From: Bdellovibrionales bacterium | GTDB taxonomy: Bacteria; Bdellovibrionota; UBA1018; JADZFF01 | DNA: 37,862 nucleotides | Reading direction: 5' to 3' | Assembly (NCBI GenBank): GCA_020850015.1 | Contig: JADZFF010000110.1 | Span: forward strand, 1 to 37,862 | The notes under the pieces: generated by a model | Databases searched by the model: none | What the model saw: the letters and a program-made list of their open reading frames with translations, nothing else | Told to the model about the DNA's origin: nothing | Program-made: the position numbers and the translations under genes | Part shown: piece by piece, positions 30,984 to 33,668 of the stretch | How the letters are laid out: the number at the start of each line of letters is the position of its first letter | How positions within the stretch are numbered: the stretch's first letter is position 1

Positions 30984-31142
30984 ATGCACTCCCGCGCTCT
31001 TGCCGTCCTGGTTGCCTCCACACCTCTGCTTCTGGGCTTTCCCACCTGCGGCCCCGGCCTGGTTCTTCCCGGCGACACCCCCGAGGAACTTTCCCCCTAT
31101 CACGAGCTCGTGCTCTCCCACGGTCCCATGGGATCGTGGCGG
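30984..31142 (+). pseudogene. 5' fragment of a LamG lipoprotein gene
   Basis: MHSRALAVLVASTPLLLGFPTCGPGLVLPGDTPEELSPYHELVLSHGPMGSWR parallels the N-terminus of 16252-17016 (ACGPGILAPGASSGLESYEDLILLHSPMAYWRLDE) and stops at the WR position. Confidence 0.7.
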
Positions 31143-31146
31143 ACCG

Positions 31147-31659
31147 TTAGTTTTTGGGGAGGTCGCAATCCTGCGGGAAGTAAGCCTTGCAGCGATCTCC
31201 GACCTGAATGCGGGAGAACGTCATGAAGAAGTAAACGGGTGTACTGGTAAACCGCGAGGGCGTCGGGCTTCCTTTATATTGTTTCCTCTCCTTGTCTTGG
31301 ATCGGGTGATGTCCGACGAGCCGCACGGTTTTGGCTCCCTTTACCATCTCGCGATACTCGCGTTCGATCTCTTTGCACTCTTGGAGCGGAATGAAGCGAA
31401 GATGATTGAAAGAATAAGCTGTCTTTCCATCTAGAGCGTAGAAGCTCATCATGGAGAGCGATCCGCCTGGGCCGACAGGCTTTGAGCACCCCATCCATAG
31501 GTCATCCGCTGGAACTTCGATATCCACGAAACTAGGAGTTCGCTTATGCATGATGGCCTTTGGCGGCGCTTTTTCGTTTGCATGTGAGTCGCGGATGAAA
31601 GAAAGACTCGGAACCATTCCAAGGACAAGTGCCAAGAGTGGGAATGCGACGTGAGTCAT
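31147..31659 (-). CDS. Exported protein of the Doc-fusion operon (candidate immunity/inhibitor)
   Basis: Signal-like N-terminus MTHVAFPLLALVLGMVPSLSFIRDSHA; start overlaps the upstream stop by 4 bp. Confidence 0.65.
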   Translation of the reverse strand: MTHVAFPLLALVLGMVPSLSFIRDSHANEKAPPKAIMHKRTPSFVDIEVPADDLWMGCSKPVGPGGSLSMMSFYALDGKTAYSFNHLRFIPLQECKEIEREYREMVKGAKTVRLVGHHPIQDKERKQYKGSPTPSRFTSTPVYFFMTFSRIQVGDRCKAYFPQDCDLPKN

Positions 31660-32933
31660 GGACGTGTCCTGAAGGAACTTCGCTTGTTGCGAATTTCTTC
31701 GTGAAGCCCCTTTAGTTTTTTCATGATTTCGTCCGTCTTCTCATCCCTTCCAATGTCCTTGAATATCCCTTTGTACTCTGCTGCCGCTTCGTCCCAGGTT
31801 ACCTCGCGCTTGAGGCGGCTTTTCACGAGATGCCGTTTATGGTGGAGCCAGCGGATCCCCGCCGCGAGATTGACGTCGATCTCCCGGCTCTCCTCTTTGG
31901 TCATTTGGATGAGGTGCTCCTTGAGCTCGCCTTTTGGGTCTTGAAGGATCTTACGGGTCGACTCGGTGATCTGAAGCGGTCCGCGTGCCGCGCCCGCGTG
32001 GCTTGGAGTATCGGGTAGGTCCCTGAAGCTGGTCTCGGTTGCGATCAGGACCTTGATGAGGTCCGGCGTGAGGGGATCGTCGGGATTGAGAGTTTCGTTC
32101 CAGAACTTGGTCCAACCCGCGATGCTGAGGTCGTATCGGTTTTGGTTGGGGTAGTCCCACGGGTCTGGTACAGGCATGGCTTCAGGATTGTTTCGAAGGC
32201 CTTCGAAATGCAGGCGCGCGATCTCTCTGAGTTCATCACTCGTGTAGATCTCGCGTCCGCTGGGGTTTGTGCGGCAGTGTCCCCGGCGAAGCGTCTCCCT
32301 CTCCGGAAGCTCGAGGGTCGGCGGGAGAGTGAGTTCGTGTTCGCGGACCCAGTGCATGCCAATGGGGCAGAGACGCCAAGGGTGGGACTTGGCGGAGTCT
32401 TCTTTAGGCGGAGTTTCTTGGGGAGTCTTCCGCGGAGGAGGTTCGCCGCGTTTCTTTGGGAATACTCCGTCCAGTGCTTCCTTCACGATGCGATCGATGA
32501 GGGAGGAGGCGACCTTTTTGAGGACGGCGAGCGGCATGCGAATACTGTATGGGGCGCTTGGTTTGTGGTCAAAGTGGAATTCGCAGGGGCTCAGGAGGAG
32601 GGATTCGGCCACTCCGGTTGACGCTGGCCCTTGGATTGGAGCGACCACCTTGAGCCCGTTCACCTGGAGAAAAACCGAAGCGGTCAATGCAGCAATCCGT
32701 TTGTTGCCGTCATTGAAAGCGTGATTCTTCACCAGGTGGAAAAGGTAGGCAGCCGCCATCTCCTGCAGGTCTTTGTGAAGATACTCTTCGCGGAAACCTG
32801 CCTCGGGCTGGGCAAGGGCGGAGAGCAAAAGCCCTTCATCCTTTACGCCATGAGAGCCACCAAATTGTTCAATTTGGATCTTATGCAGCGCGAGCACTTG
32901 CTCGAAGGTGAGGAATTTGGGGCTCAGACTCAT
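31656..32933 (-). CDS. Doc/Fic-family toxin fused to a C-terminal lytic-transglycosylase-like domain
   Basis: N-term FLTFEQVLALHKIQIEQFGGSHGVKDEGLLLSALAQP...HLVKNHAFNDGNKRIAALTASVFLQVNG (Doc HxFxDGNKR motif); C-term LIKVLIATETSFRDLPDTPSHAGAARGPLQITESTRKIL...NLAAGIRWLHHKR resembles SLT-fold transglycosylases. Confidence 0.8.
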   Translation of the reverse strand: MSLSPKFLTFEQVLALHKIQIEQFGGSHGVKDEGLLLSALAQPEAGFREEYLHKDLQEMAAAYLFHLVKNHAFNDGNKRIAALTASVFLQVNGLKVVAPIQGPASTGVAESLLLSPCEFHFDHKPSAPYSIRMPLAVLKKVASSLIDRIVKEALDGVFPKKRGEPPPRKTPQETPPKEDSAKSHPWRLCPIGMHWVREHELTLPPTLELPERETLRRGHCRTNPSGREIYTSDELREIARLHFEGLRNNPEAMPVPDPWDYPNQNRYDLSIAGWTKFWNETLNPDDPLTPDLIKVLIATETSFRDLPDTPSHAGAARGPLQITESTRKILQDPKGELKEHLIQMTKEESREIDVNLAAGIRWLHHKRHLVKSRLKREVTWDEAAAEYKGIFKDIGRDEKTDEIMKKLKGLHEEIRNKRSSFRTRP

Positions 32934-33169
32934 TTCGCCAGATTCTTCATCATCTTGCCGTACCGCTTATTGATGTCACCAGCCGACTTGAGCACCTCGT
33001 CGTCACTTGCGCGAGCGGGCGCCTTGTCGCGAATGAAGCGGATATTGAGCCCGTCTTCTTTAGGGGTGACTTCAACGACGGTGTTCCGGTCGAGCTGGTA
33101 GAGTTCGGCAATGGGCTTGTCGATGATGAATCCCAAGCTCGAACCAATAGCCGTTAAGTTCTTTTTCAT
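32930..33169 (-). CDS. AbrB/MazE-like antitoxin
   Basis: MKKNLTAIGSSLGFIIDKPIAELYQLDRNTVVEVTPKEDGLNIRFIRD: SpoVT/AbrB swapped-hairpin pattern; AGGTGA Shine-Dalgarno at 33175-33180; stop overlaps the Doc start (ATGA). Confidence 0.82.
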   Translation of the reverse strand: MKKNLTAIGSSLGFIIDKPIAELYQLDRNTVVEVTPKEDGLNIRFIRDKAPARASDDEVLKSAGDINKRYGKMMKNLAK

Positions 33170-33188
33170 AACAGTCACCTCATTGGCC

Positions 33189-33217
33189 ATATTATCGGAA
33201 TCAAATGATGATTGCAA
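33189..33217 (-). promoter_or_regulatory. Sigma70-like promoter of the antitoxin/Doc-fusion operon
   Basis: Minus strand TTGCAA - 17 nt - TAATAT, just upstream of the antitoxin ATG at 33169. Confidence 0.65.
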
Positions 33218-33283: not shown

Positions 33284-33490
33284 TTACCAAGAGATTTCCT
33301 CGCGATCCCGGTAAAAGCCGCCTGTAGGCCCGCCATCTGGCAAGGTTGCAAGCCACACGATTCCATTGGCGGCCTCTGCCGGCGAACGATCAGCTTCCTG
33401 CCCGCCCATATCGGTCCTAACCCAGCCGGGGCATACCGAGTTGATGAGTACGTTCGTTCCCGCCGTCTCGTCGGCAAGGATGCGCGTGTA
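33284..33490 (-). pseudogene. 3' fragment of a short-chain dehydrogenase/reductase gene
   Basis: TRILADETAGTNVLINSVCPGWVRTDMGGQEADRSPAEAANGIVWLATLPDGGPTGGFYRDREEISW* matches the C-terminus of carbonyl-reductase-type SDRs; upstream part absent. Confidence 0.8.
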
Positions 33491-33668
33491 TGTGGACGGC
33501 CAGATCGAGGATGAGGCGCCGGCCCTCTTCGGAACCACTTTCTCGGTCGGGGGAGGTTCGCTCGCGGCCACCCGTTCCTCCACCACCTACAACGAGCTGG
33601 CGTTCTACGGGGTTGCCCTCACGAGCGCCCAGATCGCCGACCACTACCGCGCAGCCGTGGGCGAATAG
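33481..33668 (+). pseudogene. 3' fragment of a LamG-domain gene
   Basis: MRVYVDGQIEDEAPALFGTTFSVGGGSLAATRSSTTYNELAFYGVALTSAQIADHYRAAVGE*: LamG C-terminal motif without its N-terminus. Confidence 0.8.

What the first reader, a model, noticed from the sequence alone, without database searches (positions are those of the whole stretch)
31147..33217. Three-gene operon: AbrB-like antitoxin / Doc fused to lytic-transglycosylase-like domain / exported protein
Seen: three minus-strand ORFs linked by 4-bp overlaps (TCAT at 32930-32933; 31656-31659), one consensus promoter (TTGCAA-17-TAATAT) and a Shine-Dalgarno. Known: Doc toxins act in the cytoplasm and are often small and paired with a short antitoxin; SLT-type transglycosylases act on peptidoglycan outside the cytoplasm. 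Inference: combining both in one 425-aa polypeptide is topologically odd and suggests a dual-compartment toxin or injected effector, with the AbrB-like protein controlling the Doc half and the exported 170-aa protein possibly an immunity factor against the muramidase half.
Basis: partly seen in the sequence, partly recalled or inferred. Interest (0 to 1): 0.88.

Follow-up and report, generated by a model that had tools for sequence, protein, structure and literature searches.

The report
Cell-wall toxin riding behind toxin-antitoxin genes
The odd Doc–transglycosylase fusion is one copy of an apparently undescribed mobile gene set, seen in Bdellovibrionota (the phylum of the predatory Bdellovibrio) and Legionellales, in which a cell-wall-cutting enzyme with no export signal is almost always followed by an exported, probably protective, partner and usually sits behind or fused to one of many interchangeable toxin–antitoxin modules.

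Summary
In detail: AbrB-like antitoxin (32930-33169), a 425-aa Doc–SLT protein (31656-32933) and an exported 170-aa protein (31147-31659), minus strand, two 4-bp overlaps, in a low-GC islet (52-58% in a 65% contig). The interpretation needs changing. The Doc part is cut at residue ~98; its last ~33 residues are replaced by unrelated sequence, and the SLT protein's own start is probably Met133. The two halves come from different modules: intact AbrB–Doc pairs 75-84% identical exist elsewhere, and the SLT+exported pair is a widespread family (123 of 374 genomes of this phylum; also Legionellales). In 63 SLT clusters none has a signal peptide; 53 of 54 downstream partners look exported. Catalytic Glu is kept in 114/114. 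The upstream or fused gene is a TA gene of many families (>=17/54 by Pfam; ~38/54 by eye) against 0/57 control genes, swapped about 26 times on the tree. Where the pair decays, the SLT core is deleted and the exported gene stays intact. T6SS was not found in the phylum. Best reading: a leaderless muralytic toxin plus periplasmic immunity protein, carried by exchangeable TA operons. Toxicity, inhibition and delivery route are untested.

The parts
33189..33217 (-). promoter-like TTGCAA-17-TAATAT
   Evidence: read from sequence; 8 of 12 consensus bases, not listed by the scan
33176..33181 (-). Shine-Dalgarno-like GAGGTG, 6 nt before ATG 33169
   Evidence: sequence
32930..33169 (-). AbrB-like antitoxin, 79 aa from ATG 33169 (86 aa if from ATG 33190)
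   Evidence: TIGR02609 doc_partner weak; 78-84% identical to antitoxins of intact Doc pairs in L042-L044
31656..32933 (-). 425-aa fused ORF: truncated Doc + linker + leaderless SLT protein
32640..32933 (-). Doc domain residues 1-98, motif HAFNDGNKR (residues 71-79, 32697-32723); normal C-terminal ~33 residues missing
32538..32639 (-). residues 99-132, disordered linker, not Doc in any frame, probably former 5' untranslated DNA of the SLT gene
   Evidence: (pLDDT <50)
31656..32537 (-). SLT protein proper from its probable ancestral start Met133; no signal peptide
   Evidence: Met133 onwards resembles the L022 N-terminus; SLT family
32238..32381 (-). conserved Cys/His beta domain (residues 185-232; CPxG..H..HC..N), possible metal site
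32034..32036 (-). codon of predicted catalytic Glu300 (ATETSF), conserved 114/114
31147..31659 (-). exported 170-aa partner (signal-peptide-like N-terminus), predicted immunity protein

Best explanation
The locus is one copy of a horizontally mobile module of two core genes: an SLT-fold peptidoglycan-cutting enzyme made without a signal peptide, and a translationally coupled exported protein that inhibits it in the periplasm (toxin and immunity). The pair is carried downstream of, and coupled to or fused with, the last gene of a toxin-antitoxin operon. The TA type is interchangeable and probably supplies the autoregulated promoter and/or stabilises the islet. In this window an AbrB-Doc operon plays that role; a deletion removed the end of doc and joined it in frame to the SLT gene, so the Doc activity is probably lost or impaired while SLT and its partner remain. 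Shown here by sequence: composition, conservation, partner identity, missing leader, coupling, partner swapping, asymmetric decay. Inferred: toxicity, inhibition, how SLT reaches peptidoglycan (leakage, lysis release or an unknown route), and the role of the TA.
For: SLT domain by Pfam in relatives, lysozyme-superfamily fold, catalytic Glu 114/114. Leaderless 0/63, partner exported 53/54, control 17/59. 90 of 98 partners form one homologous family and mostly overlap the SLT gene. Partner evolves faster (mean identity 22% vs 44%) and tracks the SLT, Mantel r 0.65. Asymmetric decay: SLT remnants with the core deleted or broken directly upstream of an intact partner in L212, L213, L216, L218 (partner with one stop), L221, L225, L228, L230, with in-frame deletions in L221 and L228. 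TA gene upstream or fused >=17/54 vs 0/57 control (Fisher 1e-6) and vs 3/47 downstream of the partner (0.002). TA class changes 26 times on the tree; the two Doc cases are separate. Spread: 123/374 genomes, up to 6 copies; low-GC islet. Precedent for a leaderless lysozyme-like protein damaging its own cell without its secretion system and an exported protein protecting in cis: XAC2609/XAC2610 (PMC10933484).
Against: No experiment shows toxicity or inhibition. The partner model (pLDDT 86) matches no known lysozyme inhibitor or immunity fold, nor do profiles. No delivery route found. About 30% of SLT copies have no recognisable TA upstream even by eye; many TA calls are by eye. Four of 61 SLT representatives with downstream sequence have no recognised partner. 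The closest relative, L022, has no same-strand TA upstream.
Confidence: 0.62

Rival explanations
1. One reading: one dual toxin, Doc acting in the cytoplasm and SLT on the wall, perhaps injected into rivals, with one antidote for each half.
For: Doc motif intact, antitoxin intact, one open frame.
Against: Doc lacks its C-terminal quarter and residues 99-135 are disordered; most SLT copies have no Doc; no T6SS in 374 genomes; VirB4-type T4SS only in 32 of 123 SLT-bearing genomes and not in this one.
Confidence: 0.08
2. Altruistic lysis or phage defence: the TA proteins sense infection and release or activate the cytoplasmic SLT, which kills the cell; the exported protein holds it in check otherwise.
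For: TA genes upstream or fused, including sensor-like ATPases, AlbA_2 and conflict-system genes; leaderless SLT resembles an endolysin held in the cytoplasm.
Against: TA class is freely swapped, which argues against a specific trigger; no holin-like gene seen next to the pair; orphan partners persist after SLT loss, which fits protection from others or from a lost cis toxin equally well.
Confidence: 0.14
3. SLT and partner are an ordinary cell-wall remodelling enzyme and periplasmic cofactor that happen to sit in TA-rich islands.
For: SLT enzymes are common housekeeping proteins; islands concentrate TA genes; Fic, BrnT or NTase genes also lie downstream in a few loci.
Against: Patchy presence (123/374) and multiple copies, no signal peptide, TA excess on the upstream side, 4-bp couplings and fusions, core deleted while partner kept.
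Confidence: 0.13
4. The fused ORF itself is an assembly chimera or a decaying pseudogene, unrelated to the function of the family. (This concerns only the window copy and can be true together with the best explanation of the family.)
For: One contig of a 200-contig assembly; doc truncated and linker unrelated; partner short of its C-terminal YWGG.
Against: Reading frame open through all 425 codons, both 4-bp couplings intact, GC of all parts similar, the same gene order unfused in L030.
Confidence: 0.2

Closest known systems
XAC2609/XAC2610 (Xanthomonas T4SS lysozyme-like effector X-Tfe and exported immunity X-Tfi; PMC10933484)
   Same: Leaderless wall hydrolase, adjacent exported protein, protection in cis shown there
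   Different: No T4SS needed or present here in most genomes; no C-terminal X-Tfe secretion domain seen; partner not detectably related in sequence or fold search; TA genes upstream
Pesticin/Pim and other peptidoglycan-targeting bacteriocins (general knowledge; related T6SS effector PMC9927483)
   Same: Muralytic toxin without signal peptide, immunity protein in the periplasm
   Different: No receptor-binding or translocation domain recognised; SLT fold rather than phage-T4 lysozyme fold; TA operon linkage
Type II TA Phd/AbrB-Doc
   Same: AbrB-like antitoxin followed by Doc, 4-bp overlap, same residues as intact pairs up to residue 98
   Different: Doc C-terminus lost and fused to SLT
HEPN-MNT, AbiE, zeta, VapBC, HicAB, HigBA TA modules
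   Same: Occupy the same upstream position in other copies, some fused to SLT (MNT, HepT)
   Different: Followed by an SLT plus exported pair, not part of any described TA system of these types that I know
Polymorphic toxins (PMC3482391) and polyvalent proteins (PMC5512222)
   Same: Doc and lysozyme-fold domains are both recorded as toxin or effector modules; linked immunity genes
   Different: No long trafficking N-terminus, not in phages or plasmids searched, small two-gene pair behind TA operons

Membership tests
Doc toxin of type II TA (TIGR01550/PF02661) | HxFx(D/N)xNKR active-site motif | tested here: met
   HAFNDGNKR residues 71-79
Doc toxin of type II TA (TIGR01550/PF02661) | complete ~128-133-residue Fic/Doc fold including C-terminal helices | tested here: not met
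   match ends at residue 98; relatives continue with DEFEKLVL...IADFFRKN, window does not; pLDDT <50 for 99-135
Doc toxin of type II TA (TIGR01550/PF02661) | cognate antitoxin encoded immediately upstream | tested here: met
   AbrB-like, 78-84% identical to antitoxins of intact pairs
Lytic transglycosylase SLT (PF01464) | profile match | tested here: inconclusive
   window protein itself no hit; close family members hit above cut-off
Lytic transglycosylase SLT (PF01464) | catalytic Glu and GxxQ motif on lysozyme fold | tested here: met
   Glu 114/114, Gln 113/114; fold search phiKZ gp144 and lysozymes
Lytic transglycosylase SLT (PF01464) | peptidoglycan cleavage | not testable with these tools
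   needs enzyme assay
Effector-immunity pair | toxin gene with adjacent exported partner, one homologous family | tested here: met
   53/54 partners exported-like, 90/98 in one family
Effector-immunity pair | asymmetric loss (toxin lost, immunity kept) | tested here: met
Effector-immunity pair | partner neutralises toxin | not testable with these tools
   needs expression or binding assay
T6SS effector | T6SS present in carriers | tested here: not met
   VipB/TssC 0 of 374 genomes
Bactericidal T4SS effector (X-Tfe) | VirB4-type T4SS present in carriers | tested here: not met
   32 of 123 carriers; not this genome
Known lysozyme inhibitors/immunity folds | sequence or fold similarity of partner | tested here: not met
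   no PDB match E<=0.001 by fold or profile

The most novel reading that the evidence does not exclude
A two-compartment toxin-antitoxin system: a cytoplasmic TA pair and a wall-lysing toxin with periplasmic antitoxin form one selfish or defensive unit, in which loss or activation of the operon kills the cell through its wall, with the TA half exchangeable. It would be a new class of TA or defence module particular to Bdellovibrionota and Legionellales.
Probability: 0.3. Interest if true: 0.86.

Novelty: new variant of a known kind. Interest (0 to 1): 0.72.

Why it matters
It links two worlds usually kept apart, intracellular TA modules and periplasmic cell-wall toxins with immunity, in bacterial groups known for predatory or intracellular life. 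It gives directly testable pairs (leaderless SLT plus exported partner), a possible new lysozyme-inhibitor fold, and an example of TA operons serving as exchangeable carriers of another toxin. It also warns that TA annotations of fused Doc, MNT or HepT proteins can hide a muralytic domain that Pfam misses.

Tried and rejected
Phage or plasmid origin: no match in phages, plasmids or viral contigs. T6SS delivery: no VipB in 374 genomes. T4SS delivery: weak association (odds ratio 2.4, p 0.002), absent from most carriers. Frameshifted Doc C-terminus in the linker: other frames show none. Exported partner as known lysozyme inhibitor: fold and profile searches empty. My guess that the minority WTGGAHCC partner family is XAC2610-like: not supported. 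TA hotspot as sole cause: TA excess is upstream, not downstream. RNA element in the islet: none. Papers describing such a set: none found; the library lacks many subscription journals.

Full report
What is in the window. On the minus strand lie an AbrB-like gene, a 425-aa fused gene and a 170-aa exported-protein gene, joined by two 4-bp ATGA overlaps. The three genes have 52-58% GC in a contig of 65%, so they look like a foreign islet. Doc is certain by family models and PDB sequence matches. The C-terminal half has no Pfam match on its own but belongs to a family whose members match SLT PF01464. Its model is confident for residues 185-425 and resembles lytic transglycosylases and lysozymes (probability up to 0.99, E-values weak). 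The antitoxin probably starts at ATG 33169; the proposed promoter is only 8 of 12.

Two modules joined. Intact AbrB-Doc pairs 75-84% identical to the window stand alone in three other genomes; all stop matching at Doc residue ~98, where they go on for another ~33 residues that the window lacks. SLT relatives start matching at about residue 140-180 and are separate genes or carry other N-termini. The closest SLT relative, L022, has an N-terminus that resembles the window from Met133 on, and is followed by a homologue of the exported protein, 44% identical. So the fusion most likely arose by a deletion that joined doc codon ~98 to the leader of the SLT gene. Another genome, L030, has the unfused order AbrB, Doc, SLT, exported, but its SLT is not the window's nearest relative and its Doc is only 41% identical, so the Doc association probably arose twice.

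A family-wide pattern. The SLT family occurs in 123 of 374 genomes of the phylum, up to six copies each. Named records are Bdellovibrionales, Bacteriovoracaceae, Oligoflexia and Legionellales MAGs. It was not found in viral contigs, phages or plasmids. I collected 114 distinct SLT proteins, 63 clusters at 70% identity. None of the 63 has a signal-peptide-like N-terminus; 53 of 54 downstream same-strand proteins do, against 17 of 59 control genes (a simple hydropathy rule). The gap is mostly -4 to -16 nt. Ninety of 98 partners form one family by BLAST linkage. Seven of 61 representatives with downstream sequence were not counted as having a partner: L022 has one by tblastn, L061 and L120 have exported-like ORFs called on the other strand, four have none recognised. 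The partner diverges faster than the SLT but in step with it.

TA linkage. The gene just upstream, or the domain fused to the SLT N-terminus, falls in TA families: MNT nucleotidyltransferase, HepT, AbiEii, HigB, zeta, HicB, Fic (17 of 54 by Pfam), plus AlbA_2, DUF4325, DUF4143 and HVO_A0114, and by eye about 38 of 54, including degenerate MNT domains, PIN, ParE and DUF4258. The same test upstream of other genes in these contigs gave none in the families shown (0 of 57, with short proteins inspected by eye; two control entries that lay in SLT operons were removed), and downstream of the partner 3 of 47. Caveats: one search lists only the 25 commonest families, the by-eye figures are mine, and MNT fusions share descent; counted as one event the contrast remains (12/43 vs 0/57, p 1.5e-5). 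On the SLT tree the TA class changes 26 times for 15 classes. The nearest rows to the window carry MNT-like, AbiE, VapBC and DUF4143 partners.

Decay. Of 91 strong partner hits, 68 lie directly behind a listed SLT. Of 20 others fetched, eight have SLT remnants with the core missing or broken directly upstream of the partner, which is intact in seven of them and has one stop in L218; two of the remnants are in-frame deletions that keep the start and the overlapping end (L221, L228). In L227 and L223 a TA or HEPN gene precedes the partner with no SLT left. This is what toxin loss with retained immunity looks like, and it suggests that translation of the partner depends on the upstream reading frame.

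How it most likely works. Every SLT keeps the catalytic Glu, so activity is under selection. A leaderless wall enzyme is harmless in the cytoplasm and dangerous if it crosses the membrane. The Xanthomonas pair XAC2609/XAC2610 shows that such a protein can damage its own cell without its secretion system and that the exported partner protects in cis (PMC10933484). I infer the same logic here. No T6SS sheath gene was found in the phylum and T4SS is not required, so if the toxin also acts on other cells the route is unknown. The TA operon may lend an autoregulated promoter, stabilise the islet, or both; free swapping argues against a specific signalling role.

Verdict. The sequence observation is right, the dual-toxin interpretation is not supported, and the immunity guess is supported by independent comparative evidence. 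The window copy may have lost Doc function and carries a slightly shortened partner; it is the family, not the Doc-SLT fusion, that is of interest. No paper describing the set was found in the library, which does not cover many subscription journals.

Noticed in passing
window 33284-33480 (-): Fragment of a short-chain dehydrogenase C-terminus (PF13561/PF00106, E about 1e-4) directly upstream of the antitoxin, a likely insertion or deletion scar of the islet.
   Followed up: partly
window 30984-31143 (+) and 33477-33668 (+): A signal-peptide-bearing N-terminus and a LamG-like C-terminal stretch (RVYVDGQ...) flank the islet on the plus strand; they may be the two ends of one gene interrupted or partly replaced by the islet. 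Pfam did not confirm either piece.
   Followed up: partly
L123:5704-6672, L130:5701-6660: SLT fused to a STAS-like DUF4325 domain, preceded by a partner gene with 4-bp overlap: DUF4325 pairs occupy the same slot as TA modules.
   Followed up: partly
L182, L186, L188, L191, L176, L063, L065 SLT N-termini: About 100-aa domains resembling MNT nucleotidyltransferases that lost the GSR...DxD active site but stay fused to SLT.
   Followed up: no
L182:4445-5413, L186:4656-5624: In two copies the exported partner slot holds a GH18-like exported protein (PF00704 in L186) instead of the usual partner.
   Followed up: no
L033, L078, L082, L102, L134 partner genes: A second, unrelated exported partner family of 266-291 aa with WTGGxHCC and DxDxDxxPE motifs replaces the usual partner; no known structure matches.
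   Followed up: partly
L091, L139 upstream of SLT: TOTE conflict-system primase/helicase genes lie next to SLT pairs in Gammaproteobacteria or Legionellales MAGs.
   Followed up: no
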